A stretch of 64,000 nucleotides of DNA from Corynebacterium kroppenstedtii. GTDB taxonomy: Bacteria; Actinomycetota; Actinomycetes; Mycobacteriales; Mycobacteriaceae. The stretch is taken from NCBI RefSeq assembly GCF_016894245.1, contig NZ_CP069792.1, positions 930,001 to 994,000 of the forward strand. The letters run 5' to 3'. Under the pieces are notes generated by a model that was not told the origin of the DNA, did not search any database, and saw only the letters and a list, made by a program, of their open reading frames with translations. The position numbers were made by a program, and so were the translations under genes. Shown here piece by piece: positions 8,099 through 33,860 of this stretch (the stretch's first letter is position 1; each line of letters starts with the position of its first letter).

Positions 8099-8428
8099 AT
8101 GACGCACCGCATGAAGAAGCTCATCTTCGTGATATTTTATCTCGTCCTCGCGTGCGTGACGTTGGCGGACACCGATAGCTGGACGTCCGGCACAGCATGG
8201 TTGGTGTATGTTAGCTTCGCGTTTTTCGTAGCCTACCTCGTACTGGGGTTCTGGGGCTCCCGGTGGGGCACCGACCCAGACTTCAAACCTGATCTCACCG
8301 CCGACGATATTGCGTATATCACCAAGGTGCGGGAGAAGAAAGACCATGTCGCCGCGGTGAAAGCTCTGCGGGAGCGTTACCCGCGGCTGACGCTAACCAA
8401 CGCTAACGACATGGTGAAATCTCTATGA
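8099..8428 (+). CDS. Small two-helix membrane protein with L7/L12-CTD-like tail
   Basis: About 109 residues. Two hydrophobic helices occupy roughly residues 8-25 and 35-55. A cytoplasmic tail follows, whose last segment (HVAAVKALRERYPRLTLTNA) resembles the alpha-helical pattern of ribosomal L7/L12 C-terminal domains (AVKAVRE..GLGLKEAKDLV). That resemblance is from memory of the family and needs a profile search. I chose ATG 8099 because AGGGAAGGGA lies 5 nt upstream; GTG 8072 is also open. Its last 6 bases overlap the convergent lipase gene. Function unknown. Confidence 0.7.
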   Translation: MTHRMKKLIFVIFYLVLACVTLADTDSWTSGTAWLVYVSFAFFVAYLVLGFWGSRWGTDPDFKPDLTADDIAYITKVREKKDHVAAVKALRERYPRLTLTNANDMVKSL

Positions 8429-9379
8429 CGTGCACTGCACGGCACGCCCGGAGAGCGCATGGTCGACAAGCTTGTGGCTTGGCGCTTTATCCCGCATGTC
8501 GTCGTGGCTGTAGTAGAGGCCGACGCGGCACACGTCTTGGATCATGACGTTCTGCACGGTCGCCCCGGGCCCGGCGGTGAGGTAGCCGGCCCGCGGTGGC
8601 GTTGACGCAATGTCGGTTTCGGTGGCAATAACTGTGTAATCGACCCCGGGCTCGGTGTCCGGGATGCTGTTGAGGTGCGCAACGACGTCAGAGTCGGTGA
8701 CTTGCTGCATGGGGGCGGTACCCAGAATGTTGTTGCCCGCGGTGCTCAGCAGTGGGTCGCGGTTCGGCTGGAGAGCGGAGACACCGAGTTCCGTCGTTCC
8801 GTGGTTGGTGCCGGATAGGGTGACGACGTGCGAGACCTGCTCGGCGCCGTATTCATTGAGCATCATGCGGGTTATCGCCCCGCCTTGCGAGTGGGCGACA
8901 ATATCGACTGTCCCGGAAGCCGCCCCGGCGTCGGTATTGGTGGCGACATTGTGCACGAAGTCGTGGAGCTGGTCAGTGGAGGCGTACATGTCTCCCAGGC
9001 CACCCGCGGGGTGCGTGGTGACCGCACCCTTAATTTTCATGGCTTTCCCGCTGATCGAGCTGTTATCTATGCCGTAGGTGAGGGAGTAGACGCAGTAACC
9101 GCGGTCGTGCAGGTAGGTTCCTAGTGGTGCCATGTCGTGTGCTCCGGCCCACGTTCCGGGGACAAGGACGACGGGGTTGGGGTGCTCTGGCGCGGACACA
9201 CAGGTGGGGTCGTTCCCCCAGTCGAACTTTTCGACGGTGGGCGCGCTGCCCAGGTAGTGGGACGGTTTTGGCGTTGCGGTCTGCGCGTCACCGGCGAGTG
9301 CAGGTGCCGGGGATATAGAAACTAACGCTGCGGCGAGGGCGCCTGCGACGCTGGTCGCAAGGGCATGCGTGAGTGACAT
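8423..9379 (-). CDS. Secreted lipase (class 2 / alpha-beta hydrolase)
   Basis: Exported triacylglycerol lipase-like enzyme of 318 residues. The signal peptide ends around APALAG (residue 30). The oxyanion-hole motif VLVPGTWAG and the nucleophile elbow AHSQGG (Ser164) are clear. A two-Cys pattern near the C-terminus (DVCR...VQCT) could form a disulfide, and the probable catalytic His is in LYYSHDDM. Corynebacteria have several paralogues of this family. It lies downstream of the GH1 glucosidase gene on the same strand with a 142-nt gap, so it probably has its own promoter. A GA-rich short tandem repeat sits just upstream of the start. Confidence 0.88.
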   Translation of the reverse strand: MSLTHALATSVAGALAAALVSISPAPALAGDAQTATPKPSHYLGSAPTVEKFDWGNDPTCVSAPEHPNPVVLVPGTWAGAHDMAPLGTYLHDRGYCVYSLTYGIDNSSISGKAMKIKGAVTTHPAGGLGDMYASTDQLHDFVHNVATNTDAGAASGTVDIVAHSQGGAITRMMLNEYGAEQVSHVVTLSGTNHGTTELGVSALQPNRDPLLSTAGNNILGTAPMQQVTDSDVVAHLNSIPDTEPGVDYTVIATETDIASTPPRAGYLTAGPGATVQNVMIQDVCRVGLYYSHDDMRDKAPSHKLVDHALSGRAVQCTS

Positions 9380-9521: not shown

Positions 9522-10937
9522 TTATTTAGCTAGTAGCGGTTCCCGCGGCCCATTTGGGTCGGCGGGCTTGGTGCATGACGAGGGGAGCGCGTCGAAGGAG
9601 CACACGGCGGGGGCGTGGTTGAGTTTCGCATCGGGCCGGACGCCGTCGTTGGCGGTGATGTCGCGGTAGGTGTCGACGGCGGGGGTTGGCGTGCGCTTCA
9701 GCGTGGGATCGTCCTTGATGTTGACGGTCCACAGCCCGAACCGCGAGCTGTAATCGCCCCACTCGTAATTGTCGACGAGTGACCAGTGGTTATACCCGAT
9801 CAGCGGGATGCCGTCGGCCTTGGCGCGCTGGAGCCAGTACACGGTGTCGTGCAGGTAGTCCCCGCGTTCGTACCCGTCGGGCCGCGGTGCGCCGTTGTCG
9901 GTGGGCATACCGTTTTCCACGATGTACAGCGGTTTCGTCGGGAACAGTTCGTGGTATTGGCGGAGCGCGTAGTAAATGCCTTCGGGCTCCGGGGTGACCT
10001 TGGCGAAGTCTCCGAACGCGGCGTTAATCGCGCTGAGGTTGGAGGCGGAGACACTGTAGTAGAAGTCGATGCCGACGAAGTCGACGTCGGGCTCAACGCG
10101 TTTCTGCAGGATTTCGCGCTGCACAGGGGCGATGGTGGGCAGGAATGCGTAGTTGGTGCCGGTCTGGGCGTTGGGGTCGGCTTTGTGCGCCGCGTCGTGG
10201 CCAATTTTGTTGAGCCGGACGATGGTGTCCATGTATTTGGGAAGGTCGGTGGGTTTGGCGAGCCCGATTTCGACGTCATGCCCGAAGAATACGAAGGGTT
10301 CGTTGAGGGTAACCCAGATGGTGTTGTTGCCTCCCCACCGGTCGGTGATGAGATCGGCATATTTCTGGAAGTGCTCCGCGGCGTAGTCGCTGGTGATGCC
10401 GCCGTTGTCCTCGACCCACCCGGGGTAGACGTAGTGCATCATGGTGATCATGGGCACCATGCCGTGAGCGCGTATCTCCTTGACGACGTCGTCGTAGTAC
10501 GCGATTTCTTTCTGGTCGAAGTGCCCGGGTTGGGGTTCGATGCGGGCCCATTCGACGCCGAACCGGAACGTGTTGACGCCGAGCGACGCGGCGTTGGCAA
10601 TGTCTTCCTTGTAGCGGTGGCGGAAGTCTGCTGCATTGCCGACGGGGTCTACGTCGGGATCTTTCGGATCGGTGGCGTAGCGGCTCCAGTTGCTGTCGCG
10701 GTTATCGCCTTCAACCTGGAAACCAGAGGTGGCGACGCCCCAGTGGAAGAGACCTTGTTCACCGGGTTGCCCGGTGCGGAGGAATGTCTTCGGGTGTGGT
10801 GCGTCTCCGGCGGCTGCAGTGCCTGTTCCGGTGACGAGTGTGGTGCCGGCGAGCGTCCCGGCCGCGAGGACGGCGGCAGCTGTTGTGGTGAGGAATCGCC
10901 TGCGTGAAACGGGGGAGCCGTAAAAACCAGAGAACAT
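9522..10937 (-). CDS. TAT-exported GH1 beta-glucosidase
   Basis: Glycoside hydrolase family 1 enzyme that hydrolyses beta-glucosides. The N-terminus has a twin-arginine signal (SRRRFL followed by an Ala/Thr-rich helix ending AAAGD), so it is probably folded before export. The acid/base is Glu213 in TLNEP and the nucleophile Glu341 in YIVENG. The aglycone-side motif NHWSLVDNYEWGDYSSRFGL is intact. Length (471) is normal for GH1 plus a signal peptide. An extracellular beta-glucosidase would explain an aesculin-positive phenotype, uncommon in corynebacteria. The exact sugar specificity cannot be read from sequence. Confidence 0.92.
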   Translation of the reverse strand: MFSGFYGSPVSRRRFLTTTAAAVLAAGTLAGTTLVTGTGTAAAGDAPHPKTFLRTGQPGEQGLFHWGVATSGFQVEGDNRDSNWSRYATDPKDPDVDPVGNAADFRHRYKEDIANAASLGVNTFRFGVEWARIEPQPGHFDQKEIAYYDDVVKEIRAHGMVPMITMMHYVYPGWVEDNGGITSDYAAEHFQKYADLITDRWGGNNTIWVTLNEPFVFFGHDVEIGLAKPTDLPKYMDTIVRLNKIGHDAAHKADPNAQTGTNYAFLPTIAPVQREILQKRVEPDVDFVGIDFYYSVSASNLSAINAAFGDFAKVTPEPEGIYYALRQYHELFPTKPLYIVENGMPTDNGAPRPDGYERGDYLHDTVYWLQRAKADGIPLIGYNHWSLVDNYEWGDYSSRFGLWTVNIKDDPTLKRTPTPAVDTYRDITANDGVRPDAKLNHAPAVCSFDALPSSCTKPADPNGPREPLLAK

Positions 10938-12245: not shown

Positions 12246-12374
12246 ATGACGGCTGATAATGATGGAGACAGTGCCCACGTGTTCACGGTGGGGGAGCTTG
12301 CGGAACGCCTGGGGGTATCGGTCCGGACTCTCCACTATTGGGAGGAGAGAGGAGTTTTGTGTCCCTCGGAATAA
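12246..12374 (+). pseudogene. MerR-family regulator remnant (HTH only)
   Basis: ATG 12246 opens a frame that reads FTVGELAERLGVSVRTLHYW, the winged-helix DNA-binding start of MerR regulators, then ERGVLCPSE and a TAA at 12372. A normal MerR protein continues for 70-200 more residues, so only the helix-turn-helix remains. Sequence in the next frame right after this point is oleate hydratase, which marks a deletion junction at about 12365-12375. A 42-residue product is possible but unlikely to dimerise. Confidence 0.85.
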
Positions 12375-13311
12375 GGAGACAATCGCGACACGGCCTCAAG
12401 ACCTCGTTATCGTCACCAATGGTTCACTGACAGAGTCCACGGGCTACGGGGACATGGACACGGTGCCGGAGTTTAAGACGCGGTACCGGAGTTTAAGAAA
12501 ACCCCTGGACCAGCGTGGAGTCTATGGAAGAATATTGTCGCCAAGGCTCCGAATTGCGGCCGCCCAGAGCGGTTCTGCTCGGACCCAGAATCCACGGTGT
12601 GGGAATCAATCAGCTTCAACTTCTACGACGGCTACGACAACCCGTTCACTGCGAAAATACGGGAACTCACCGATCGGGACGTGTTCAACGGACGAGTAGT
12701 GAATGCAGGAATCATCACTGCCGACGATTCTTCCTGGTTGTGCTCTCTTACTGTTCACCGGCAACCGCAGTTCCCGGGTCAGCAGGACGGACTGTGCGTG
12801 GTGTAGGCATATGGTCTTCACTGGTGGAAGAAGGGCACTGTAACAGGAAGGCCCATGTAGGAATGTATTGGTGAGGAAGTTCTTCGCGAGTTCTACTATC
12901 ACTTCGAGGTTGACGAAGTAGAGAAAACTATCAAACACACCAAAGTTCGCCTTGCGGTGATGCCGTACATCACGTTCAAATTTGTTCCTCGTGACGCAGG
13001 GGACCGGCATGATCCAGTGCCTGCTCGATCCACCAACCTGGGCTTTACTGGTTAGTTTGTTGAGACTCCGGATGACTGTGTGTTCACCACCGAAGGCTCG
13101 GCACGCACAGGCCAAATGACAGTCTATGGAATGCTAAAACCTCAAGCGCGATATCCCGCCGATCTACCCAGTGCAATACGATATCCGGGCTCTGCTCCAT
13201 TCAGCTTCAGCGATGAACGATGGGAAGCTACCAGGGAAAGCCCCTTAGGAAGTTCGTGAAGACCTGTCCCAAAAGTATCCGCACCGCCTCCTGCTACTTA
13301 TTCCTCATTGA
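12370..13311 (+). pseudogene. Oleate hydratase remnant (C-terminal half, decayed)
   Basis: Oleate hydratases are FAD enzymes that add water to cis-9 double bonds, giving 10-hydroxystearate. Spliced across frames the remnant reads RPQDLVIVTNGSLTES, then PGPAWSLWKNIVAKAPNCGR, then FNGRVVNAGIITADDSSW, LTVHRQPQFPGQQ, MPYITFKFVPRDAGDR, FVETPDDCVFTTEGSARTG and YPVQYDIRALLHSASAMNDG. These match the C-terminal half of the family as I know it. The damage includes loss of the N-terminal FAD half, a 20-bp tandem duplication at 12461-12500 that shifts frame, in-frame TAG codons at 12804, 12858 and 13053, a frame change at about 13130-13145, and a further TAG at 13246. The end at 13311 is approximate. Confidence 0.85.
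12461..12500 (+). repeat. 20-bp tandem duplication inside the oleate hydratase remnant
   Basis: 12461-12480 and 12481-12500 match at 17 of 20 positions (CGGTRCCGGAGTTTAAGA core). Removing one copy rejoins the two oleate hydratase frames on either side (DTVPEFK to KTPGPAW), so the duplication is an inactivating mutation. Confidence 0.85.
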
Positions 13312-13921: not shown

Positions 13922-14794
13922 GTGACTAGACTCAAAACCCGCGTTAAAGTGATCGCTGCCACTGCGATAGTGTCCGCCGCTGCAGCAGTCGGAGCCGTCG
14001 CAACTTCGGGCAACTTTGAGGCAAAAGCTGATGATGGAAATTACGTCAGCTTTGGTGATTCAATCCCATCAAACCCAACACAGATTCAGCTTTCCGCACA
14101 AGCTAACGACCAGCTTAGATCCCAACTGAATATTCCTGAGGTTGCACCCGGCCACTGTGCCCTGGGTAAAGATAACTTCCCGAATCGCATCGGCCACGAC
14201 ACTGGTATTGAGACAAACAATTATGCATGTGCCGCTTCTCCAGCTGCGGCCGAGCATCCGCATAACTTCCGGGCGCAGGTAGACGCAGCTCTTCATGAAG
14301 GTAAATTGAATAATAAAACGCGGTTAGTCAGCGTTTTCTTTGGGTTCAATGATGTGTATCAGAACGCCAACTTGCCTTTCGAAGAGCACAAAGCGTTGTT
14401 CGTGAATACCATGGCTGATCAGATTAATCGGGTTCGTCAAGCGGCTCCCAACGCCAGAATCGTGGTTGGCGGATACCCTGATCTGACCGACGGAAATAAC
14501 AACATCTGTCCTACTAATCTCTTTGGGGTTGCAGGCCATGTCTATGGCGGGGGTTGGGCACCCGTGCAGGACTTCGTCCGTGACTGGCAGCGGTCAGCTG
14601 CAGAAAAGGCCGGCGTCCCATACCTTGACATGATGGCCGAAATCAATGCGGCGAATAATAACAATGGTTGCACCGATAATCCCCACCGCTTGTCGGCTTC
14701 CCTAGTGGATGATCAGGAGCACAACCTATGGGGACACCTGACGGCAGATGGTAACCAGTTCTATGCGGACAAAGTTCGTAGCTACATGGCCTAA
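13922..14794 (+). CDS. Secreted SGNH/GDSL-type esterase
   Basis: Exported lipase/esterase of the SGNH superfamily, 290 residues. The signal peptide (KTRVKVIAATAIVSAAAAVG) ends near residue 30-36. Block I is YVSFGDSIPSN with Ser47 as nucleophile. Block III is FFGFNDVY, with the Asn of the oxyanion hole, and the C-terminal block HLTADGNQFY carries the catalytic His with an Asp-like partner. The GTG start at 13922 has AGAGG 8 nt upstream. Many Asn codons and AT-rich third positions set it apart from the GC-rich genes around the window. It heads the lipid cluster with CYP102 and FadD genes, so it may supply fatty acids released outside the cell. Confidence 0.88.
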   Translation: MTRLKTRVKVIAATAIVSAAAAVGAVATSGNFEAKADDGNYVSFGDSIPSNPTQIQLSAQANDQLRSQLNIPEVAPGHCALGKDNFPNRIGHDTGIETNNYACAASPAAAEHPHNFRAQVDAALHEGKLNNKTRLVSVFFGFNDVYQNANLPFEEHKALFVNTMADQINRVRQAAPNARIVVGGYPDLTDGNNNICPTNLFGVAGHVYGGGWAPVQDFVRDWQRSAAEKAGVPYLDMMAEINAANNNNGCTDNPHRLSASLVDDQEHNLWGHLTADGNQFYADKVRSYMA

Positions 14795-14869
14795 CTCTGT
14801 GTAAGCAACTTCGGTGAAGCTGCCGTAAACAGTAAATTCGAAATTCTCCTGTTCGTTTGAAAGGTTGAA

Positions 14870-15004
14870 ATGGATTTTCAAAGTTTTTGGGAAACATACG
14901 CCCCGAAAGGCCCGCTATTTTTCACCACGGGCACTTGGAATTTTGACGATTGGGCAACGCGATTAATGAATGCGGCTCCCGATATCATGTACTTCTTCAA
15001 ATAG
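14870..15004 (+). CDS. Possible 44-residue small protein, unknown
   Basis: A short ORF starts at ATG 14870 with GAAAGG 5 nt upstream, a better ribosome site than those of many genes here. The product begins MDFQSFWETYAPKGPLFF and ends DIMYFFK, and is rich in aromatic residues with no signal peptide. It lies between the SGNH esterase and the P450 gene, where otherwise there is 570 bases without a gene. Size and aromatic content vaguely recall corynebacterial small channel peptides (PorA/PorH), but I see no direct similarity. Function unknown, and it could be chance. Confidence 0.45.
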   Translation: MDFQSFWETYAPKGPLFFTTGTWNFDDWATRLMNAAPDIMYFFK

Positions 15005-15364
15005 CCTTAGTTGCCAGGTCGCCCGGGTCGCTCAATTAATCGCTTGAGTCCAAGTCGTTAAGAAGCTAATTCAGCACATCAAATCGGCTTTTGAGTTAGG
15101 TCCGGGCATTGGCTAGATTTCGGCGCACGCTCAACAGAGCTTGTAGTTCCAGCCGGGCATTAGAAGCCTAAAAACCATTCGATCGTTTACTTGATACTCA
15201 CTGTCATCGCTTTTGGAAATATAGTTTTGTTACCCTATCAAACATAGGGGTCTTCAAGCGCCGGACAATGTGACAGCAAACGGCTCTACACCTCGTTTCG
15301 CCCTGCACCGCCGAACTTCGAATGGAGTCGGTGTCTCGAACTTCTATATTAGGATTGGATTTCA
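15005..15364. promoter_or_regulatory. Leader/promoter region of the P450 gene
   Basis: No gene seen. AT-rich stretches contain -10-like hexamers TATAGT (about 15221) and TATATT (about 15346). The first has no well-spaced -35. A weak AGGATTGGA ribosome site precedes the P450 ATG. No regulator gene lies beside the cluster. Confidence 0.35.
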
Positions 15365-18300
15365 ATGAATACCCAGGTTCCCGGACCGCGACCGTTACCC
15401 GGCATTGGGACCTTGTACGCGATAAATCCAGCCAAAGTGGTTGAATCCGCGCAGAAGTTGGCTCACGAATATGGTGGCATTTATGTTCACCACCTGCCGA
15501 ATAAACCACCGCTATATGTGATTACTTCCTTCGAGCTGGCTAATGAGTTGGCTGATGAATCTAGATTTCAAAAAGATATTCATGACGCCTTGGCTGAGAT
15601 TCGGGCTTTCGCTGGAAATGGTCTCTTTACCGCCGATCAGGACGATCCTGAGTGGGAACGTGCTCACAGGATTCTGATGCCGGCTTTTACCCCCGTTGCT
15701 TTAAAGGGCATGTATGAGGGAATGGCGGATATAGCTGACCAGTTAATGTATAAGTGGTCGCGGACCCGTGGTGATGCCAGGGTTGATCTACCTAGCGACT
15801 TTACGCGCCTGACGTTGGATACAATCGCGCTAACATCGTTTAGTTACCGCTTCAATTCGTTCTATTCTGAAAAGCTTCATCCTTTCATTGGCGCCATGGC
15901 GGATGGTCTTGATGAGTCGGGGAAGCGCGCGCACCTGCCGGACTTTGCGAAGAAGATGAATGTCCTCGCTGATCGTCGCTTTCATAACGATGTCACGGTG
16001 ATGGAGGACCTCGTTGACTTCCTTATCGCCGAGCGCAAACAAAACCCCTCTCCGGAAGGTGAAGAGGACGTGTTGGATCTTATGCTGTCGGCAAAAGATC
16101 CTTCGTCAGGAAAGGGGCTTAGTGATCGGAATCTCCGTTACCAGTTAATTACCTTTTTGATCGCTGGCCATGAGACTACGTCAGGACTTCTAAGCTTCAC
16201 CCTTTATGAGCTTTTGAAAAATCCTGATGTTATGGCAAGAGCTCGTGAAGTCGTTGATAACGTCCTAGATGGCCGGTTCCCTGAGTATGACGATATTAAA
16301 GATCTGGGCTACCTTGACCAAATATTGCGCGAAACGCTACGGAAGTATCCACCAGCGCCTGGGTATGCCGTAACGCCTCTTGAACCCACCGTCCTAGGAA
16401 AAGGGTCCAAAGTGTTACCGGAGGGCGTTCGAGTTGAACCCGGTGATGTTCTATTTATAGAACTCAGCCTGTTGCACCGTGACCCAAGTGTCTGGCCAGA
16501 CCCTGAAAAATTCGATCCAGACCGTTTCAGCAGCGAACGTGCAACGGAAATCCCGCATAATGCCTGGAAACCATTTGGGAACGGACAGCGTTCATGTATC
16601 GGCCGCTTCTTCGCCCTCCAGGAAGCTACTTTAGCGTTGGCCCTGGCACTCCAGCATTTCGAATTCGAGTTTGAAGACCCAAATTATCAACTTCATTTCC
16701 TTGATGGTCTGACCCGTAAGCCCAAAGACTTCTTTGTACATATCAAGCCGAGGAAGGGACGGCCTTATCTCGGTATGGCCGGTACTTCGAAGAAGCACCA
16801 GGATGAGACGGCGGAAAACAGCAATCTTGGGCAGAGCCTTCAGCAGAAAGAGCCAAATGGCTACGGTCTAACCATTTTGTATGGGTCTAATGCTGGGACG
16901 AGTAAAAACTTTGCGCGACAGCTAGCCACCTTCGGCCAGGCACAAGGTTTCGACGTAGCTTTTAAGGAGCTAAATGAAGTAGTGGGGCAAAAGCTTCCTA
17001 CTGATCAGCCAGTTTTAATCTGTACAGCTTCATATGAGGGGCTTCCCACCGATAACGCCCGAAAGTTCGTAAATTGGCTCACTTCCACGGTTGATGCGGA
17101 TCTTTCCGGCGTCAAATACGCAGTTCTTGGTGTTGGCAACAGTGAATGGGCAAATACATTCCAACGGATCCCAACCTTGATCGATGAACAGCTAGAAGCC
17201 TTGGGTGCAGAAAGAATTCTGGACCGCGGTGTGGCTGACGTCCGGTCGGATTATGCTGGTGCCTTCGAAGACTGGTCCCAAGAGCTATGGGATCGGATCT
17301 CCACTTTGACCGGAGTCGACCTGGATGCAGGTGAGATTGGTGACCAGGTTTCTGTCTCTATGATTTCTGGAGACAGGAATACCGTGCTTCGTGATGAACC
17401 TGAAAATGGTTTTGTTAACGCTGTTATAGAAGAAAACCAGGTTTTAAGCACTGAAGCTGATGGCCCAATTAACCACAAGCGGAAGATAGCAATTCGCCTG
17501 CCTGAGGGGACGGAGTACAAGACCGGTGACTACCTCGAGTTCGTGCCAAGAAATCCGGCCGAACAGGTAGAGCGAGTGCTATCCAAATTCGATCTGTCCG
17601 CCGACCAACAAGTTCGCTTAGCCGGAAGGTCAAGTTTTCTTCCGCTCGATGTCCCCGTCACGGTGAGTGAGCTAATTGGGGGCTATGTCGAACTCAACAC
17701 GCCAGCCTCTGTTCGTCAAGTTCGCGAATTGGCTAGCGAATGCGTATGCCCTCCTGAAAAAGCGAAGTTAGAAGAACTAGCTGACGACAAGAACTATCAA
17801 CGGGAGATTCAAGACAAACGCCGATCGGTTTTAGACTTGCTAACCGAGTTTAAATCGATCGACACAACATTCGAGGCTTTTCTCGGTATGTTGCAGCCCA
17901 TGAAACCACGGAAGTATTCCATCTCGTCTTCGGCCCTCAGGGACCCGCAGTTGGCAGAACTTACTATTTCCCAAATTGATGCACCAGCATGGTCAGGTTT
18001 TGGAAGGTATAGAGGGGTTGCTACCACGTGGCTGGCCAATAAACCGGTAGGTTCCCGGATCTCGGTATCTGTAACGCCGGGTAATACGCACTTCCGTCCT
18101 GAAAAGTTGATCGAGCGACCAATGATAATGGTTGCAGCCGGTACCGGGATTGCTCCCATGCGTGCTTTTCTTGAAGAAAATGTCGTCCGCGCGAAGAACA
18201 GTGATGACCAATTGAGTCGGAGCCTGTTTTTCTATGGCTGCCACGGCGCATCCTCGGACTACCTGTATAAAGACGAACTCATGAAGTGGGAAGAAAGTGG

Positions 18301-18598
18301 TGCCGTCGATGTACGCGAAGCCTTTTCGCGTCACCCGGAGTCAATGGGAACCGAGAATATCGAGGTTAAGCATGTTCAGGACAGGTTGTGGGTAGACCGT
18401 GATGATGTAATTGAACTACTTGAGCAAGGGGCACGAATCTATGTGTGTGGTGATGCCGAACACCTCGCCCCGGCCGTAAGAGCGACAGTAACGAAGATTA
18501 TTGCAGATAAAGACGGTTTAGATGTCACCACTGCCCAGGAAAAGGTTGAATCGATGGAACGTGAAGACTTCACATACGTTTGTGACGTTTTCAGCTAA
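15365..18598 (+). CDS. CYP102-type self-sufficient cytochrome P450:NADPH reductase fusion
   Basis: Fatty-acid hydroxylase in one chain of 1077 residues, the architecture of P450 BM3. The heme domain spans residues 1 to about 470: the I-helix motif is AGHETTS (267-273), the K-helix is LRETLRKYPP and the heme ligand is Cys411 in FGNGQRSCIG. Substrate-channel positions resemble BM3, with a Phe at the F87 position (RAFAGNGLF, F82) and Tyr at the Y51 position, but Lys in place of R47. The FMN domain starts near 503 (ILYGSNAGTSKNFA). The FAD/NADPH part has RKYSISSS and AAGTGIAPMRAF. The C-terminus is CDVFS, with Phe where BM3 has Trp. The fadD gene 32 nt downstream is probably in the same operon. 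Confidence 0.95.
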   Translation: MNTQVPGPRPLPGIGTLYAINPAKVVESAQKLAHEYGGIYVHHLPNKPPLYVITSFELANELADESRFQKDIHDALAEIRAFAGNGLFTADQDDPEWERAHRILMPAFTPVALKGMYEGMADIADQLMYKWSRTRGDARVDLPSDFTRLTLDTIALTSFSYRFNSFYSEKLHPFIGAMADGLDESGKRAHLPDFAKKMNVLADRRFHNDVTVMEDLVDFLIAERKQNPSPEGEEDVLDLMLSAKDPSSGKGLSDRNLRYQLITFLIAGHETTSGLLSFTLYELLKNPDVMARAREVVDNVLDGRFPEYDDIKDLGYLDQILRETLRKYPPAPGYAVTPLEPTVLGKGSKVLPEGVRVEPGDVLFIELSLLHRDPSVWPDPEKFDPDRFSSERATEIPHNAWKPFGNGQRSCIGRFFALQEATLALALALQHFEFEFEDPNYQLHFLDGLTRKPKDFFVHIKPRKGRPYLGMAGTSKKHQDETAENSNLGQSLQQKEPNGYGLTILYGSNAGTSKNFARQLATFGQAQGFDVAFKELNEVVGQKLPTDQPVLICTASYEGLPTDNARKFVNWLTSTVDADLSGVKYAVLGVGNSEWANTFQRIPTLIDEQLEALGAERILDRGVADVRSDYAGAFEDWSQELWDRISTLTGVDLDAGEIGDQVSVSMISGDRNTVLRDEPENGFVNAVIEENQVLSTEADGPINHKRKIAIRLPEGTEYKTGDYLEFVPRNPAEQVERVLSKFDLSADQQVRLAGRSSFLPLDVPVTVSELIGGYVELNTPASVRQVRELASECVCPPEKAKLEELADDKNYQREIQDKRRSVLDLLTEFKSIDTTFEAFLGMLQPMKPRKYSISSSALRDPQLAELTISQIDAPAWSGFGRYRGVATTWLANKPVGSRISVSVTPGNTHFRPEKLIERPMIMVAAGTGIAPMRAFLEENVVRAKNSDDQLSRSLFFYGCHGASSDYLYKDELMKWEESGAVDVREAFSRHPESMGTENIEVKHVQDRLWVDRDDVIELLEQGARIYVCGDAEHLAPAVRATVTKIIADKDGLDVTTAQEKVESMEREDFTYVCDVFS

Positions 18599-18630
18599 TC
18601 GATTTATGGACCATTAAAGGAGAAAATTCT

Positions 18631-20349
18631 ATGGCCGACTACACCCTGCATCCCGAGACTGATCTGCATGTGTCAAAAAAGCAGTTAGTTCAGCAGTTTT
18701 TGTTTTTCCTAAAACAGGTGAAGCGTACTGACGTTTTCGAATTAGGTGGCATAAGAGGAATACGCGAAAACGCGAAGTTCCTAAAGCGCTGGGGTGCCCT
18801 AGAAGCAGGAAATCTTGCGATAAGCGCCCGCAAGGATCCCGACCGAACGGCACTCATCGACGATAAAGGTCAGTTCACGTACAAGGAGCTTTACGACGAA
18901 ACTCTAAGGTTGGCACATGGTTTCCAGGATAATGGCGTCGTTGCGGGACAGAATGTAGCAGTACTGGCTTTAAATGGACGGGATGTCCTTCTCCCCCTAT
19001 TTGCACGGCAAATGGTCGGATATCATATTTTCATGATCAACGCGAATAGCTCGGGGCAGCAAATCGAAAAAGTTCTTGAGTTTCACGAGATCACGACAAT
19101 TATTGTTGATAGTAATTTCTACGGACGCCTCACAGAGAAAACTAAAGCCACGGTCCAAGTGATTATTGGATATGAAGAAGACGGCTTTAGCGCTGCCGAT
19201 GAGGGTCTGAAAACGTTACAAGATATCATCGACGGCGCTTCGGTCCCAGAAACAGCTTATCGCTTTGGGGAAGACAATCTTCCCAAGAATCCTCCGAGGT
19301 CAGTTCACGTGGTGATGACGTCGGGAACTACCGGTATGCCCAAGGGCGTGGTGCGACGGATGCTCAGGTCACCCCAAGGGGTTGCTCCTGCATTGGCTGC
19401 ATATCCCCTACACCGCAACATGCGTCTCCTTCTTACCTCCGTATTGTTCCACTTTTACGGCTGGGGAATGCTCGTGCTTTGCTTGCTAACGACGTCCACG
19501 ATCATTACCCAGCGGAAATTTGATCCGGAAAGAGTTATCAAGGAAATCGATAAGTACGACATTGACAGCTGGGCTAGTGCAGCCTCAAGGCTGAGGGAAA
19601 CGTGTGCTTACCTTGACAACGCTGGAATTGAGCGAGTCAACGGTCTCGACTTCATAATTTCCTCCGGTAGCCCCTTAATGCCGTATGAGGTCGAAGAGGT
19701 TAATTCTAAGTTCGGACGTATCCTCGTTAACGGCTACGGAAGCACTGAAACCTCTATTCTGGCGGGATCGAGCGCTGAAGAGCTAGGAAACGATCCCACG
19801 TTGACAGGGACCGTTTACCCCGGGGTTCGTGTTGAGATTCGTGATGAAGATGGTAATTCGGTCCCGGAGGGGGAAACTGGTGAGGTTTGTGCTTCAACGT
19901 ATGACATGTTCGCAGGATATACAGACCCGAAAATTAAGATGAGAACAGTTGACGGCATGTTGCGAATGGGGGACAAGGGTTACTTTAAGGACGGTAAGCT
20001 CTATGTGCTTGGCCGCGCCGATGATTTGGTAATTACTCAGTATGGCGAGAAGATTTTCCCATCTGAAATTGAAGATCTCCTCGTTCGAGATGATCGGATT
20101 GGTGACGTACACGTACACGGGGTCAAGGATCCGAAGTATGGGCAGGCTCTCGTGGCTTACGTGATTCGAAGTGAGGGCGTAGCGCCAAGCGATTTAACTG
20201 CAGACGATATTCGCGCTACCACGAAGGCTCATCTCTCCGAGGCTCATGTTCCGAGGGACGTGTTTTTCGTTGATAGTTTTCCGAGAAATCCCATGGGTAA
20301 AGTTATCCGACACGAGCTGCCTGATCACTCGACGGCTCCAGAATCTTAA
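18631..20349 (+). CDS. Acyl-CoA synthetase, FadD paralogue 1
   Basis: AMP-forming ligase that activates a carboxylic acid, probably a fatty acid, to acyl-CoA; 572 residues. The phosphate-binding loop MTSGTTGMPKG begins near 229, YGSTE (A5 motif) and GRADDLVITQYGEKIFP (hinge and A8) follow, and the catalytic Lys is in NPMGKVIRHELP near the end. ATG 18631 has AAGGAG 8 nt upstream and the gap from the P450 gene is 32 nt, so the two are likely co-transcribed. The natural partnership would be CoA activation of P450 products or their precursors. Its acid specificity is not readable. Closest relatives are the next two genes. Confidence 0.93.
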   Translation: MADYTLHPETDLHVSKKQLVQQFLFFLKQVKRTDVFELGGIRGIRENAKFLKRWGALEAGNLAISARKDPDRTALIDDKGQFTYKELYDETLRLAHGFQDNGVVAGQNVAVLALNGRDVLLPLFARQMVGYHIFMINANSSGQQIEKVLEFHEITTIIVDSNFYGRLTEKTKATVQVIIGYEEDGFSAADEGLKTLQDIIDGASVPETAYRFGEDNLPKNPPRSVHVVMTSGTTGMPKGVVRRMLRSPQGVAPALAAYPLHRNMRLLLTSVLFHFYGWGMLVLCLLTTSTIITQRKFDPERVIKEIDKYDIDSWASAASRLRETCAYLDNAGIERVNGLDFIISSGSPLMPYEVEEVNSKFGRILVNGYGSTETSILAGSSAEELGNDPTLTGTVYPGVRVEIRDEDGNSVPEGETGEVCASTYDMFAGYTDPKIKMRTVDGMLRMGDKGYFKDGKLYVLGRADDLVITQYGEKIFPSEIEDLLVRDDRIGDVHVHGVKDPKYGQALVAYVIRSEGVAPSDLTADDIRATTKAHLSEAHVPRDVFFVDSFPRNPMGKVIRHELPDHSTAPES

Positions 20350-20496
20350 AGTCAAACCTGATTTCGACTTATGCTGGTGATTGCGGTGCCGGGCGTATAT
20401 CACCAGTGGACTTTGATGAGCTAAATTTCCATACGGATCTTTGGTATTCGTGCATAGCCCATTATAGCTCCTGGTGTGAAGCGTCAAAATAATTGG

Positions 20497-20545
20497 AAAA
20501 GGAACCGTTTCTGTTGTAATGACAGGCGGTTCCTTTTCGATTTTA
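20497..20545 (+). terminator. Hairpin terminator between FadD paralogues 1 and 2
   Basis: AAAAGGAACCG (20497-20507) pairs with CGGTTCCTTTT (20527-20537), with an inner CTGT/ACAG stem, and a T stretch (20541-20544) follows. It ends the P450-fadD unit, so the next paralogue needs its own promoter in 20545-20622. Confidence 0.75.
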
Positions 20546-20622
20546 AATAGTAAAGAAGAATATAAGTCCCCAGTGCAATTCTTCCGTGTAACCCTATTTA
20601 AAGGTGAAGAGGTCTTCAGCCA

Positions 20623-22323
20623 ATGAATACTAAATCCTATACCTTCGAAACGCGGGTTCCTCGGGTACTTTCCAAGAAGGAAATCTTCAAGCAGCTTGCC
20701 CTGCTCCTCAAGCGGTCTTGCCAAAAAGAGTTTGTTAAGTTCAATGGTTGGGCTGACCTCCGAAAGGATCTAAAGAATCTTAAGCGTTGGGGCGGGTTAG
20801 AGGGCTTTATAATTTCCCGAGGAGCTCGGCAAGTTCCTAGCCGTCCGGCTCTGATCGATGACGATGGCACACTGACATATAAAGAGCTATACGATGCTGC
20901 GTATAAGTTAGCTCAGGCTCTGCACTCTCGTGGCTTGGGTGACGGCGCCAACGTTGCGGTTATGGCCCTTAATGGTCGTGGTTCGATTCTTCCACTCTGC
21001 GCACGTCAGATGGCTGGCTACAATATTTTCATGATCAACGCGAACGCGTCGGCACCTCAAATCGAGCAGTACCTCGACTTCCACCAGGTAGACGCCCTCA
21101 TCGTGGACGAAGAATTCATTCCGCTGCTGACAGATAAGTCCCGGGACCGCACTGTCTTTATAGCCCATCGTGATAAAACGTCGTCGAGCAAGAGTGGTGC
21201 GAGCGACACCTACGTATCGATTAACCAGCTTATCCACACCGCTCCCGCCGATTACGAGCTGCCTGAAAAGCCTTATAAAGGGATGCATGTGGTGATGACG
21301 TCGGGAACCACCGGCACGCCCAAGGGCGTGGTGCGTCGGCCATTGAATTCACCCCAGGGTTTCGCATCGGTCGCAGATGCTATGCCATTAGAACGTGGTA
21401 TGACCGTTCTCTTAACGGCGGTCCTATTCCACGCCTATGGCTGGGCATACATGGGGTTTGCCTTTTTCACCCAGTCCACTGTCATAGCCCGCAGACATTT
21501 TTCCGGAAGCCAGGTTATTCACGACTTCAAAAAGTATGACGTCACGATGTGGGTGACGGCGGCAACGCGCATCCGCGAAGTCATTGGTTACATGGATGAA
21601 CAGGACATAGACCGGTATGACGGCCTCAAAATCATTACGAGCTCCGGCAGTCCCCTCATTCCTTATGAAATCAAGCGGGCCAATGAAAAATTCGGCCCCG
21701 TCCTGTACTCGATGTATGGCAGCAGTGAAACATCTGCCGTTGCCGTCGCGCCAGCAAATGAATTGGTGAAAGACCCGGAGCTGACAGGAAAAATTTACCC
21801 CGGATGCATCGTCAAAATCTTCGATGATGAAGGAAATGAGCTTCCAGAAGGGGAAGAAGGCCTCGTCGCCATTTCCTGCTTCGACCTTTTCGCTGGTTAC
21901 ACAGACCCCAATATCTCTATTCCCTCAATTAAAGGTTATTGGCCAATGGGGGATCGCGGGGTCGTTCGCGATGGAAAGCTGTATGTGCACGGTCGCGCGG
22001 ATGACCTTGTGATTACTCAGTATGGGGAGAAGATATACCCCATCGAGCTTGAAGAAAGCATTATGCAAATGCCAGGAGTGCAGGATGTCACCGTACTAGC
22101 CGCTGACGACAAAACAACCGGCCAAGCGCTTCGCGCCTACGTCATCCGCGATACTGGATCAGAACGGCCATATGCTGACGAAGTGAGAAAATGGGTGGAA
22201 GAACACCTCTCCAAGGCGCATGTTCCTCGAGATGTCGTCTTCGTGAAAAACTTCACCCGTGGACCAGCTGGAAAAGTTATTAAACGCGAGCTACCACACT
22301 ACGGGGAAGAATATAGCGATTAA
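20623..22323 (+). CDS. Acyl-CoA synthetase, FadD paralogue 2
   Basis: Second AMP-forming acyl-CoA ligase (566 residues). The ATP-binding loop MTSGTTGTPKG starts near 225, then YGSSETSA, GRADDLVITQYGEKIYP and the C-terminal Lys motif GPAGKVIKRELP. The bases encoding the loop and the next few residues (21289 onward) are almost identical to those of paralogue 1 (19309 onward). That points to recent duplication or gene conversion. It is bracketed by about 270 and 205 bases of noncoding DNA, so it may be a separate transcription unit. Substrate unknown. Confidence 0.93.
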   Translation: MNTKSYTFETRVPRVLSKKEIFKQLALLLKRSCQKEFVKFNGWADLRKDLKNLKRWGGLEGFIISRGARQVPSRPALIDDDGTLTYKELYDAAYKLAQALHSRGLGDGANVAVMALNGRGSILPLCARQMAGYNIFMINANASAPQIEQYLDFHQVDALIVDEEFIPLLTDKSRDRTVFIAHRDKTSSSKSGASDTYVSINQLIHTAPADYELPEKPYKGMHVVMTSGTTGTPKGVVRRPLNSPQGFASVADAMPLERGMTVLLTAVLFHAYGWAYMGFAFFTQSTVIARRHFSGSQVIHDFKKYDVTMWVTAATRIREVIGYMDEQDIDRYDGLKIITSSGSPLIPYEIKRANEKFGPVLYSMYGSSETSAVAVAPANELVKDPELTGKIYPGCIVKIFDDEGNELPEGEEGLVAISCFDLFAGYTDPNISIPSIKGYWPMGDRGVVRDGKLYVHGRADDLVITQYGEKIYPIELEESIMQMPGVQDVTVLAADDKTTGQALRAYVIRDTGSERPYADEVRKWVEEHLSKAHVPRDVVFVKNFTRGPAGKVIKRELPHYGEEYSD

Positions 22324-22528
22324 GTAGAACAGTTAAAGTAACTAACTACCCGTGTCTGCATTAGGTAGGTTAATTCCGGTTGTAGAAAATGTGAAGTATT
22401 TGAGAGTCGTTTGATCAGGTTATAGTAATTTTGCGGTAAAAAGTAACGCTTGATACGCTCATTCCGATTTGAACACTGCAGCTGTTTCCCTAATTTTGCT
22501 GTCAGATAACGCTTAAAGGAATGTAGAT
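22324..22528. promoter_or_regulatory. Spacer between FadD paralogues 2 and 3
   Basis: About 205 AT-rich bases with a TATAGT -10-like box near 22422 and an AAAGGA ribosome site at 22515-22520 for the next gene. No gene or clear terminator seen. Confidence 0.35.
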
Positions 22529-24235
22529 TTGTCAAATTTTACGCTTACTCCACGGATCAACCACGGAGCACCTGCTAAGGTCAAACTTCAGCAGTTTGGC
22601 TACTTTTTGCGTATTCTCAAGGACCTCGAGGTCCTCGAGCCCGTGGGGCCTGGCGACATCGCCGCCGCAGCGAAAAGCTTCTACCGCTGGGGAGCACTGG
22701 AAACGACCATGCTATCCATGGCTGCCCGGATGAATCCGGACCGATTAGGGCTCGTCGACGATGACGGCGAGCTCACTTACGCCGAATTTTGGGAGTGCAC
22801 CAACCGCCTCGCCCTTGGCCTGCAGGCTCGCGGAGTCAAGGCCGGCACCAACGTCGCTGTTTTAGCCCGCAATGGTAGGGCAGCCATACTCCCCCTTACG
22901 TGCCGCCACATGCTGGGCTTCAACATCTTTATGATCAACGCGAACACGTCGGCAAAACAGCTCGAGCACGTCCTGGCATTCAACCACATTGACGTCTTCA
23001 TCCTGGACGATGAATTCCTCCCCATGCTCGCAGATGATGCCACAGATAAATATGACATCATCCTCGGCCACGTCGATAACTCCGACAACGCTGAACGTTA
23101 TGAGACCATGGATGACATCATCAGGCAGGCCCGAGTAACAGACTCGCTACCCTTAAGACCGAAACGTGGCTTCCACGTTGTTATGACGTCGGGAACCACC
23201 GGAATGCCGAAGGGCGTGATCCGTGGGGCCTTCAAGTCGCCGCAAGGGGCGGCACCATTAGTCTCAGGGATTCCCTGGAAGCGGGGCCTCACTGTCATCC
23301 TCACCAGTGTTCTCTTCCACGACTATGGATGGGCCAACCTCGTCTTATCCTTATTTACGCAATCCACCATCATTGCTCGACGGGGCTTCTCTCCGGAAGA
23401 AACACTGCGCGACATCCAGCACTACAACGCCACGGCGATGTGCTCGGCTGCATCGTGGCTCCGTTCCATCGTCTCCTATATGGATAACGAAGGAATTGAC
23501 CACGTTGACGGACTTCGTTTCATCGTCTCAGCAGGTAGCCCCTTGGCTGCGCATGAAATCGAAAAAACCAACGAAAAATTCGGCGGCCTAGAAGGTGGCC
23601 CAGAAGCCCAACCCGTCCTGTGCAACCTCTACGGAAGCTCAGAATCCGGCCCGATCGCCGTCGCACGGCCCGAAGAACTCGCCGCGGACACCGCACTCAG
23701 TGGCCGCATCTACCCCGGCGAAATCGTCGACATCCGCGACGAGGACGGCAACCCGGTACCTGAAGGCGAAATTGGCCTTATCTGGGTTGCTGTGTACGAC
23801 CTCTTCGCTGGGTACACCGACCAAGACATCGACATCCCCACCATCAACGGTGCGATCTGCATGCACGACCGCGGGTACATCACCGATGGCAACATGCTCC
23901 ACGTGCTCGGCCGTGGGGATGACCTCATCATTACCCAATACGCCGAAAAAATCTTCCCCATCGAGATTGAAAACGCCCTTGTTTCGCACTCGCGGATCCA
24001 CGACTCCTATGTCCACGGCGTCGCGGACGACCAGTATGGTCAGGCCATTCGCGCCTACATCATCAGAGAACAAGGCACCGACCCGATCACCGCAGACGAA
24101 GTCCGCGAGCACGTTGTCAATGAACTCTCCGAGGGGCACCGCCCCCGGGACGTCTTCTTCGTTGACGAATTCCCCCGCAACCCCATGGGCAAAGTCATCC
24201 GCAAGAAACTCCCCGGGCACTCCACCGTCGAGTAA
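22529..24235 (+). CDS. Acyl-CoA synthetase, FadD paralogue 3
   Basis: Third AMP-forming ligase, 568 residues, starting at TTG 22529 (AAAGGA 8 nt upstream). The motifs are intact: MTSGTTGMPKG near 219, LYGSSESGP, GRGDDLIITQYAEKIFP and the catalytic Lys in NPMGKVIRKKLP. It differs from the first two in carrying a short insertion (EGGPEAQPV) before the A5 motif. Its base composition is also much more GC-rich toward the 3' end, as in ordinary genes of this chromosome. This suggests it is the resident copy and the AT-richer two are newer or imported. Substrate unknown. Confidence 0.93.
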   Translation: MSNFTLTPRINHGAPAKVKLQQFGYFLRILKDLEVLEPVGPGDIAAAAKSFYRWGALETTMLSMAARMNPDRLGLVDDDGELTYAEFWECTNRLALGLQARGVKAGTNVAVLARNGRAAILPLTCRHMLGFNIFMINANTSAKQLEHVLAFNHIDVFILDDEFLPMLADDATDKYDIILGHVDNSDNAERYETMDDIIRQARVTDSLPLRPKRGFHVVMTSGTTGMPKGVIRGAFKSPQGAAPLVSGIPWKRGLTVILTSVLFHDYGWANLVLSLFTQSTIIARRGFSPEETLRDIQHYNATAMCSAASWLRSIVSYMDNEGIDHVDGLRFIVSAGSPLAAHEIEKTNEKFGGLEGGPEAQPVLCNLYGSSESGPIAVARPEELAADTALSGRIYPGEIVDIRDEDGNPVPEGEIGLIWVAVYDLFAGYTDQDIDIPTINGAICMHDRGYITDGNMLHVLGRGDDLIITQYAEKIFPIEIENALVSHSRIHDSYVHGVADDQYGQAIRAYIIREQGTDPITADEVREHVVNELSEGHRPRDVFFVDEFPRNPMGKVIRKKLPGHSTVE

Positions 24236-32506: not shown

Positions 32507-32622
32507 AGTGAATGTCACACGCTGATACGCTACCCGCTGCTCAATTACCGACGTATTTACCGGACGCATTTACCGATGGAGTAGTTCTAGCGCAGCCGGC
32601 GCTCCACAACCACAAAGAGCGT

Positions 32623-33015
32623 CTAAGACGTCGTCGATTGTTCGGAGGAGTACAAGCCCATTTCTTCCGTGAGTGCTGTTAACTCGTCGGCAGCCTTCCG
32701 CGTAGTGATTTCTCGTGCGCGCGTGTATTCTTCCACGTCGCTCGCTTAGACGCGTCGGTGAGCGCCCACTTTGTGCCCGGGAAGCGCCCCTTCGTCGATA
32801 AGTTTTACGACATACGGGCGGGAAACATTGAGGATATCGGCGACTTGTTGCGTCGTTATTTCCGTATGCTCAGGAACAATGGAGATCGATTGGCCAGTGG
32901 CCGCATTCTCGAGCACCTCGCGCAGGGCTAGAGCGACAGGGCGGGGCAAAGTGATGCTTTCTCCCGATGGTTCAAGAGCGACGTCGATAAATTGTTGAGG
33001 AGAGTTATCTAGCAC
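32623..33015 (-). pseudogene. HTH antitoxin/excisionase-like gene with internal stop
   Basis: The first 89 codons give an all-alpha protein with a helix-turn-helix (TTQQVADILNVSRPYVVKLI, then GALPGHKVGAHRRV). A TAA at 32746-32748 ends it, but the same frame then continues ASDVEEYTRAREITTRKAAD and LTALTEEMGLYSSEQ to a TAG at 32623. Intact family members, as I recall them, carry just this C-terminus. So one codon, possibly TTA, became TAA. In intact loci a PIN-domain toxin follows; here only a few codons reading LFVVVERRLR remain before stops. The short 89-residue form could still bind DNA. Confidence 0.75.
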
Positions 33016-33488
33016 GTGGTTGAGCTTGCGAAGTGCGTCGCGTGAGACAGTACCTCCGATTGCTCGGCAGTGGCGTCGTGTTTTTGCTGCGCGTTGTTGA
33101 TCGCAATGGAGACAACTTATCGAATAAGCGAAATAAAGGAAATAGCCGAAATGAACGAAACATAAGGCGGGGGAAGAAACCGCGCGCGATCCAGAAGCTC
33201 ACTGAGTGACCCCTATAGGCTTCTTGAGGATGTCTTGATACCCACTTTCGGGCGTATCGAATCCGGTATAAAACAGCTGAAAATCCTTAGAAGGTCCTGG
33301 TTTGCTAAACTGAGGTTTGCCTAACTCACCTCTCTATAGGAAGAAGTTCAATTTTTCATAGAAGTCGGAGATCTCTCGATCTGTCAATAAGCGCGGGAAC
33401 GGTTCTCTCTCCTACAGCGCACGCTGTATTCCTACATAGGCGTTACCGCAGGATCTACCGCCACTTCGTCAGCTGAACACACTGATGG
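33016..33488. other. Gap with iron-box-like site and signal-peptide-like fragment
   Basis: No intact gene. It holds the DtxR-like site at 33311-33329, a ribosome-like AGGAAGAAG (33339-33347), and then an open stretch 33351-33476 without a normal start (ATT). Its reading SRRSLDLSISAGTVLSPTAH looks like a signal peptide with a cleavage site. This may be the front of a lost iron-regulated exported protein gene. Confidence 0.4.
33311..33329. promoter_or_regulatory. DtxR (iron box)-like operator
   Basis: TGAGGTTTGCCTAACTCAC agrees with the DtxR consensus TTAGGTTAGCCTAACCTAA at 14 of 19 positions, including the central GGTTnGCCTAAC. DtxR represses iron-uptake genes when iron is present. The nearest intact downstream gene is the membrane protein at 33489. 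Confidence 0.5.
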
Positions 33489-33860
33489 ATGCTTATGAAT
33501 AAGAAATACGCTTTCACCTTTTTATTGGCAGTTTTTTATGCAATATGCACCGCAATGACTGCAGGCTCTCAGCTTGTTGAGAATATTAATGAGAACACTG
33601 CGAAGGTTATTATCAATAGCCTCCTATTGGTCTCAGTCGCCGTCGTTTCCATAATTTTGGTAGCTATGTTTCAACGTAAACGCTCCCCTGTGAAGTTCAA
33701 TCGCGTATCCATATTGAGTTTCACAGCTATTTACGTAATAGCGGTCTTGGTCAGCGGACTACCTTTAGCGACGCTTCTTTTCCCAGCATGTATGCTTGGC
33801 GCATTCATAGCTGTTCCGAGTTATCAGAATTGGCTTAAATCCGCTAGCGACCCCTTGTGA
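33489..33860 (+). CDS. Small integral membrane protein, unknown
   Basis: 123 residues with four predicted hydrophobic helices (about 8-26, 40-60, 75-93, 95-112). There is a basic loop (FQRKRSPVKF) between helices 2 and 3 and a short polar tail. No motif recognised. ATG 33489 and ATG 33495 are both possible; neither has a strong ribosome site. Codon use is AT-rich compared with lpd next to it, which suggests recent acquisition. It lies downstream of the iron-box-like site, so iron regulation is possible but unproven. Confidence 0.6.
   Translation: MLMNKKYAFTFLLAVFYAICTAMTAGSQLVENINENTAKVIINSLLLVSVAVVSIILVAMFQRKRSPVKFNRVSILSFTAIYVIAVLVSGLPLATLLFPACMLGAFIAVPSYQNWLKSASDPL

What the first reader, a model, noticed from the sequence alone, without database searches (positions are those of the whole stretch)
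13922..24235. Lipid-processing cluster: SGNH esterase, CYP102 fusion and three tandem acyl-CoA synthetases
A secreted esterase, a one-chain P450/reductase of the BM3 type and three FadD paralogues lie in one orientation over 10 kb. The P450-FadD1 gap is only 32 nt. The set could release, hydroxylate and activate fatty acids as one pathway. CYP102 enzymes are not, to my knowledge, a standard part of corynebacterial genomes, and the cluster splits the usual topA-adenylate cyclase order.
Basis: partly seen in the sequence, partly recalled or inferred. Interest (0 to 1): 0.75.

Follow-up and report, generated by a model that had tools for sequence, protein, structure and literature searches.

The report
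Fatty-acid release, hydroxylation and activation cluster
A corynebacterium from a breast-associated group that appears unable to make its own fatty acids carries a small gene set, kept together in several corynebacteria, that most likely frees fatty acids, adds a hydroxyl group and tags them with CoA, and here a P450 stands where an older hydroxylating enzyme has broken down.

Summary
In detail: SGNH hydrolase, CYP102-type P450/reductase fusion and three FadD paralogues lie in one orientation at 13922-24235. The organism belongs to the Corynebacterium kroppenstedtii complex. The genes are more than neighbours. All 19 full-length CYP102 genes found in 18 of 242 Corynebacterium genomes sit beside a related SGNH gene and the same FadD subfamily, in about 10 chromosomal contexts. 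None of 18 CYP102 loci read in other genera of the family has that SGNH nearby. The gene-poor DNA just upstream (12369-13262) is a broken remnant of an oleate hydratase, another enzyme that makes hydroxy fatty acids. The four genomes with the FadD subfamily but no CYP102 all have an intact oleate hydratase beside it. I conclude that this is a conserved release-hydroxylate-activate module whose hydroxylating enzyme is exchangeable. The three FadDs are old, separate lineages, not a recent triplication; only the first comes with the P450, the other two also stand at this site in a relative without it. Substrates, order of steps and purpose (salvage, detoxification or lipid building) are inferred, not shown. 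The parts are known; the assembly did not turn up in the eight paper searches made.

The parts
12369..13262 (+). broken remnant of an oleate hydratase gene (C-terminal half only, frame changes and in-frame stops)
   Evidence: tblastx/tblastn to intact relatives: residues about 285-570 of 591, main piece 78-81% identical, with stops; the G088 relative is NF010584 oleate hydratase at 730 bits, cut-off 567, and PF06100 at 611 bits
13922..14794 (+). SGNH/GDSL hydrolase with N-terminal signal-like stretch; phospholipase A1/lipase-like fold
14795..15364 (.). 570-nt low-GC spacer (46%) between SGNH and P450; a separate P450-FadD promoter is possible but none was found by consensus
15365..18598 (+). 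CYP102-type self-sufficient P450 (heme + FMN + FAD/NADPH domains)
   Evidence: 47% identity (211 of 445) to the BM3 heme domain
18631..20349 (+). FadDa, acyl-CoA synthetase, the conserved CYP102 partner (32 nt downstream)
20623..22323 (+). FadDb, acyl-CoA synthetase grouping with FadDs that elsewhere lie beside oleate hydratase
   Evidence: pairs with G088 FadDb, 100/100
22529..24235 (+). FadDc, acyl-CoA synthetase, probably the longest resident (GC3 0.70, like the flanks)
   Evidence: (95% to G088 at the same site)

Best explanation
The core is a conserved three-gene module, SGNH hydrolase + CYP102 + FadD, that converts fatty acids taken from the surroundings. Proposed steps: the exported SGNH hydrolase cuts acyl chains from lipids outside the cell (inferred from fold and signal-like N-terminus). 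The P450 hydroxylates the free fatty acid near its end with NADPH and O2 (inferred from family and retained residues). FadDa, made from the next gene, turns the fatty acid or its hydroxy product into acyl-CoA for lipid building or beta-oxidation (inferred). The hydroxylating step can be filled by CYP102 or by oleate hydratase; in this lineage the hydratase is broken and CYP102 is present. Shown: conserved linkage, family membership, the broken hydratase, the sister locus. Inferred: substrates, order of steps, purpose.
For: 19 of 19 full-length CYP102 genes in 18 of 242 Corynebacterium genomes have both SGNH and the FadD subfamily adjacent; in 18 of 19 the order is SGNH>CYP102>FadD on one strand with 9-97 nt between CYP102 and FadD. 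About 10 different flanks. 0 of 18 CYP102 loci in other genera of the family have the SGNH in the stretch fetched. All 22 genomes with the FadD subfamily (47% identity or more) carry CYP102 (18) or an intact oleate hydratase beside that FadD (4: G088, G138, G127, G060). Three more genomes (G066, G084, G178) have SGNH-FadD-oleate hydratase in one row with distant members. The window P450 keeps the Y51, F87, E267, T268 and C400 equivalents, with K for R47. FAS-I is absent in 14 of 18 module genomes against 55 of 224 others.
Against: No activity, expression or lipid data. SGNH is 200-574 nt from CYP102 in 18 of 19 loci, so co-transcription of all genes is not implied. 4 of 19 CYP102s lack the Tyr51 equivalent and one of these also lacks F87, so substrates may differ. 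7 of 18 intact oleate hydratases have neither SGNH nor FadD within the stretch fetched, and 3 have SGNH only. In the FadD tree four CYP102 partners (G021, G132, G231, G194b) fall outside the main CYP102-partner group, and G194b sits with the hydratase partners on a long branch. G126, G132 and G194 carry both hydroxylating enzymes, so the exchange is not strict. 4 of 18 module genomes have FAS-I. Counts are not corrected for relatedness.
Confidence: 0.6

Rival explanations
1. Detoxification: the P450 (or oleate hydratase) and the FadDs remove toxic unsaturated free fatty acids of skin, milk or tissue. The P450 and FadD act side by side on the same free acids rather than in series, and the esterase either releases or re-esterifies them.
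For: S. aureus oleate hydratase is thought to protect against unsaturated fatty acids (passages of PMC13317201). A paper seen only in a search listing reports lipase-mediated detoxification in S. aureus (PMC11096360). Occurrence of CYP102 or oleate hydratase beside the same FadD subfamily fits a need that either reaction meets.
Against: C. kroppenstedtii-like strains are reported to lack fatty-acid synthases and to have all genes to oxidise fatty acids (PMC11491465 section 9), so salvage is at least part of it. A secreted lipase-like enzyme would add free fatty acids.
Confidence: 0.25
2. Lipid building: hydroxy-acyl-CoA is a precursor of a surface or secreted glycolipid or ester, and SGNH is an acyltransferase or trimming enzyme of that product.
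For: C. parakroppenstedtii secretes acylated glucose-oligosaccharide glycolipids, one type with 3-hydroxycapric acid (PMC11491465 section 7, part 1 of 2 read). A secreted-looking GH1 enzyme and a lipase lie beside the locus, and a GH1 relative also lies beside the oleate hydratase/FadDb locus of G138, G127 and G060.
Against: A 3-hydroxy group is what beta-oxidation gives, not what CYP102 is known for (subterminal; recalled). The paper names no gene for it (0 hits for P450, gene cluster, acyl-CoA, glycosyltransferase). 15 of the 18 module genomes lie outside the kroppenstedtii complex.
Confidence: 0.15
3. Hitch-hiking: a horizontally moved block whose genes travel together without a shared pathway.
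For: GC below that of the surroundings in the window lineage and in G183, G184, G107; a Mutator-family transposase gene beside the block in G183.
Against: Same trio in about 10 contexts, in loci from 50% to 73% GC with matching gene GC in several; oleate hydratase beside SGNH and FadD in 8 of 18 genomes with an intact gene.
Confidence: 0.08

Closest known systems
CYP102A1 (P450 BM3, Priestia megaterium)
   Same: One-chain heme-FMN-FAD/NADPH enzyme; 47% identical heme domain; Y51, F87, E267, T268, F393, C400 equivalents kept
   Different: K for R47; below 55% identity, so a separate subfamily by the usual rule (recalled); partners SGNH and FadD, which the BM3 gene is not known to have (recalled)
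Oleate hydratase (OhyA/MCRA), S. aureus and others
   Same: Same kind of product (hydroxy fatty acid); intact in 18 of 242 genomes, beside SGNH and FadD in 8 of those 18
   Different: Water addition to a double bond, not oxidation; in the window only a broken half gene remains
Mycobacterial FadD2/FadD12-type acyl-CoA ligases
   Same: Best NCBIfam matches of all three FadDs
   Different: 298-313 bits against a cut-off of 875, so outside that named group; 35-36% identical to the FadD that sits near holB in the three other corynebacteria read
Streptomyces phospholipase A1 / S. rimosus lipase / S. scabies esterase (SGNH)

Membership tests
CYP102 (self-sufficient fatty-acid P450) | P450, flavodoxin, FAD and NAD(P) domains in one chain | tested here: met
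   all four Pfam domains over their cut-offs
CYP102 (self-sufficient fatty-acid P450) | over 40% identity to CYP102A1 (naming rule recalled) | tested here: met
   211 of 445 aligned residues of the heme domain
CYP102 (self-sufficient fatty-acid P450) | heme Cys, acid-alcohol pair and F87 | tested here: met
   C, E, T and F kept; roles of the residues recalled
CYP102 (self-sufficient fatty-acid P450) | carboxylate anchor R47/Y51 | tested here: inconclusive
   Y51 kept, R47 is K in the window; Y51 kept in 15 of 19 and R or K at 47 in 6 of 19
CYP102 (self-sufficient fatty-acid P450) | hydroxylates fatty acids | not testable with these tools
   needs enzyme assay
SGNH hydrolase | Ser, Gly, Asn, His of blocks I, II, III, V | tested here: met
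   S47, G95, N143, H272 invariant in 19 of 19 aligned (13 of the 19 module SGNHs and 6 relatives); fold matches
Secreted lipase / phospholipase A1 | acyl ester cleavage outside the cell | not testable with these tools
   signal-like N-terminus read by eye only; no signal predictor was run
Acyl-CoA synthetase (FadD) | AMP-binding and C-terminal domains; TSGTTG and catalytic Lys motifs | tested here: met
   motifs (recalled) read in the sequences
FadD2 (NF005859) | curated score cut-off | tested here: not met
   298-313 bits, cut-off 875
Oleate hydratase | full-length open gene in the window | tested here: not met
   only residues about 285-570, broken; intact in G126 and G088

The most novel reading that the evidence does not exclude
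Corynebacteria that depend on host lipids carry a dedicated hydroxy-fatty-acid module: a secreted SGNH lipase, an exchangeable fatty-acid hydroxylating enzyme, and a FadD subfamily specialised for hydroxy fatty acids. In the C. kroppenstedtii complex a CYP102 joined this site and the oleate hydratase then decayed in one branch (the window and C. pseudokroppenstedtii), changing the position of the hydroxyl group and the acids that can be used.
Probability: 0.35. Interest if true: 0.7.

Novelty: new variant of a known kind. Interest (0 to 1): 0.55.

Why it matters
The natural role of CYP102 enzymes is still debated although BM3 is among the most used P450s (recalled). A fixed genomic partnership with an acyl-CoA synthetase and a lipase-like enzyme, and an apparent exchange with oleate hydratase, gives a concrete, testable role. 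It would also make corynebacteria candidate makers of hydroxy fatty acids; a 2026 review asks for detection of such acids on skin and for the part that bacterial hydratases play (passages of PMC13317201).

Tried and rejected
Rejected: FadDa-b-c as a recent tandem triplication (49-52% identity of FadDb and FadDc to FadDa, three separate groups). Rejected: the 169-aa ORF at 12606-13115 (-) as a gene; the best conserved frame is the + strand oleate hydratase remnant. Rejected: FadDs as members of the named FadD2 group.

Led nowhere: promoter and terminator scan (3 and 7 sites, fewer than the 10.5 and 13.8 expected from shuffles). PDB sequence search with SGNH (0 matches). Among 10 flanking proteins from six module loci given to Pfam, one regulator was found, a MarR gene beside G107; other flanking genes were not tested for regulators. 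Paper searches for P450 or CYP102 with kroppenstedtii or Corynebacterium and for oleate hydratase or CYP102 with Corynebacterium, acyl-CoA synthetase or clusters listed nothing on this module by title or abstract; some searches showed only the best 20 of 29, 31 and 49 papers. The library lacks most subscription journals; the 2008 C. kroppenstedtii genome paper was not seen.

Weak points: the first FadD tree had two rows cut out of frame; they were re-cut and the tree rebuilt with 34 rows; seven of the earlier 41 were left out (G184, G239, G137 partners, two G126 rows, two G127 rows). The link to FAS-I loss (Fisher p 9e-6) and the link of oleate hydratase to the FadD subfamily (7 of 9 genomes with a match of 70% or more, p 6e-7) are not corrected for relatedness; the nine include G185, whose hydratase has an in-frame stop. 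By my grouping the 14 module genomes without FAS-I fall in about six lineages and the four with FAS-I in four. The number of contexts (about 10) is my reading of unshared flanking ORF clusters, where the SGNH was hidden by antisense ORFs in several loci; SGNH presence rests. The three corynebacteria read for the FadD-SGNH pair near holB were chosen because searches showed the two genes adjacent.

Full report
WHAT IS THERE. The P450 is a full one-chain CYP102-type enzyme whose best solved relatives are bifunctional P450/NADPH-P450 reductases, BM3 among them. Its heme domain is 47% identical to BM3 (211 of 445 aligned positions). The window comes from the Corynebacterium kroppenstedtii complex: the P450 is 99% identical in C. 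pseudokroppenstedtii MC-17X and 97% in C. parakroppenstedtii MC-26. The genome is one contig of 2.48 Mb.

IS THE CLUSTER MORE THAN CHANCE. In 242 Corynebacterium genomes (own included), 30 match the P450 at E 0.001; 18 of them have 19 full-length CYP102 genes and the other 12 match only in part. The FadDa query splits the genus sharply: one subfamily at 47% identity or more, in 22 genomes, then a step down to 38% or less. All 19 CYP102 genes have a subfamily FadD and a related SGNH gene next to them. In 18 of 19 the order is SGNH, CYP102, FadD on one strand, with 9-97 nt between CYP102 and FadD and 200-574 nt between SGNH and CYP102, by the start codons chosen. In the second copy of G194 the order is CYP102, SGNH, FadD. 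Judged by shared flanking ORFs there are about ten chromosomal contexts. In the wider family 301 genomes, drawn evenly from a larger group, gave 18 CYP102 loci in 17 genomes of other genera (E at most 1e-150). None of the 18 has the SGNH within the stretch fetched (mostly about 5 kb each side, some cut by contig ends), and two have only a weak FadD-like hit of 67-74 bits. Identity matrices of the three genes correlate (CYP102-FadD r 0.93, CYP102-SGNH r 0.88), as expected of genes that move or descend together.

THE HIDDEN FOURTH PARTNER. The gene-poor stretch upstream of SGNH holds a broken gene. Its best conserved reading is on the + strand, 12369-13262, with frame changes and stops. Intact relatives of 591-599 aa lie in G088, G138, G127, G060 and G132. 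The two tested with Pfam or NCBIfam cut-offs at this class, from G088 and G126, are oleate hydratases: PF06100 at 611 bits for G088 and NF010584 at 730 and 723 bits against a cut-off of 567; the solved relatives of the G088 protein are oleate hydratases too. The window and C. pseudokroppenstedtii (G137) keep only residues about 285-570, with stops; C. parakroppenstedtii (G126) has an intact copy 98% identical to that of G088. In all, 22 of 242 genomes match. By the loci read, 18 have an intact gene; G000, G137 and G185 have a broken one and G009 fragments. Of the 18, 8 have both SGNH and FadD within about 5 kb: five with the FadDb type (G088, G138, G127, G060, G132), and G066, G084 and G178 with a same-strand SGNH-FadD-hydratase row of distant members. 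Three have SGNH only (G224, G030, and G126 where that SGNH is in two pieces). Seven have neither: G213, G049, G194, G148, G125, G216, G121. The four genomes that have the FadD subfamily without CYP102 (G088, G138, G127, G060) have the hydratase within about 2 kb of it. So each of the 22 subfamily-FadD genomes carries a fatty-acid hydroxylating enzyme, CYP102 or oleate hydratase; G126, G132 and G194 carry both.

HISTORY OF THE SITE. G088 is a close relative without CYP102; its chromosome length matches my memory of C. kroppenstedtii DSM 44385, which I could not verify. It has the same frame: topA, lipase, GH1, oxidoreductase ... FadDc, cyaB, holB. Inside it carries an SGNH (46% to the window's), oleate hydratase, a second SGNH (30%), FadDb (74%), a 3-hydroxyacyl-CoA dehydrogenase gene and FadDc (95%). 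What the window has in addition is CYP102 and FadDa. GC3 in the window is 0.53 for SGNH, 0.50 for CYP102, 0.52 for FadDa, 0.56 for FadDb, 0.70 for FadDc, and 0.66-0.80 for the six flanking genes listed; FadDb is of low GC in G088 too (0.48), so low GC alone does not date its arrival. The tree (34 rows) puts FadDa in a group of 12 CYP102 partners plus one extra G194 row (98/97), FadDb in a group with the six hydratase-locus rows from other species, G088 FadDb and one G194 row (9 rows, 100/100), and FadDc with G088 and the CYP102 partners of G132 and G231 (99/96). The CYP102 partners of G021 and G194b fall elsewhere, the latter on a long branch next to the FadDb group. The simplest story is that FadDb and FadDc were at the site before, that SGNH-CYP102-FadDa entered a site already serving the hydratase type of the module, and that the hydratase then decayed in two of the three complex members with CYP102. 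In 54 of 56 other genomes with both genes on one contig, topA and cyaB are at most 8 kb apart (median 1.8 kb); here the gap is 16.2 kb and in G126 33.2 kb. In three other corynebacteria, chosen because searches showed the genes adjacent, a more distant FadD (35-36%) and SGNH pair stands just beyond holB, so an SGNH-FadD pair near this site may be old in the genus.

WHAT IS KNOWN. CYP102, oleate hydratase, FadD and SGNH are each well known. I found no description of the linkage in the listings of the eight paper searches made. Nor is it in what I saw of five papers: PMC11491465 (outline, passages, section 7 part 1, section 9), PMC8733736, PMC9045094 and PMC13317201 (passages) and PMC4440974 (whole text). 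The acylated glycolipids of C. parakroppenstedtii are an appealing product, but their 3-hydroxy acid is not what a CYP102 is expected to make, and no gene is named in the passages searched.

LIMITS.

Noticed in passing
window 9522-10937 (-): GH1 enzyme with a twin-arginine-like N-terminus (read by eye); a 65-67% identical GH1 lies beside the FadDb/oleate hydratase locus in G138, G127 and G060, so it may belong to the same lipid or glycolipid theme.
   Followed up: partly
window 8423-9379 (-): Secreted-looking lipase (Palm_thioest and Lipase_2 hits); a 47% relative stands beside GH1 and FadDb in G060 (L093:12242-13117).
   Followed up: partly
L090:6000-6857: 3-hydroxyacyl-CoA dehydrogenase gene between FadDc and FadDb in G088; the best match in the window genome is 26% identical and elsewhere.
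   Followed up: partly
L090:11550-12424 vs window 12369-13262: The oleate hydratase block is inverted relative to its flanks between G088 and the window, a sign of local rearrangement.
   Followed up: no
L124:15864-16735: An SGNH gene in two overlapping pieces beside the intact oleate hydratase of C. parakroppenstedtii (G126).
   Followed up: no
L051:13950-14849: Mutator-family transposase gene directly after the module in G183.
   Followed up: no
L060:8360-11590: Second CYP102 of G194 with I for F87 and L at both carboxylate-anchor positions, and a different gene order; probably another substrate.
   Followed up: no
window 32570-34068: About 1.5 kb without an ORF of 130 aa or more and with lowered GC (0.52-0.53); not examined.
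   Followed up: no
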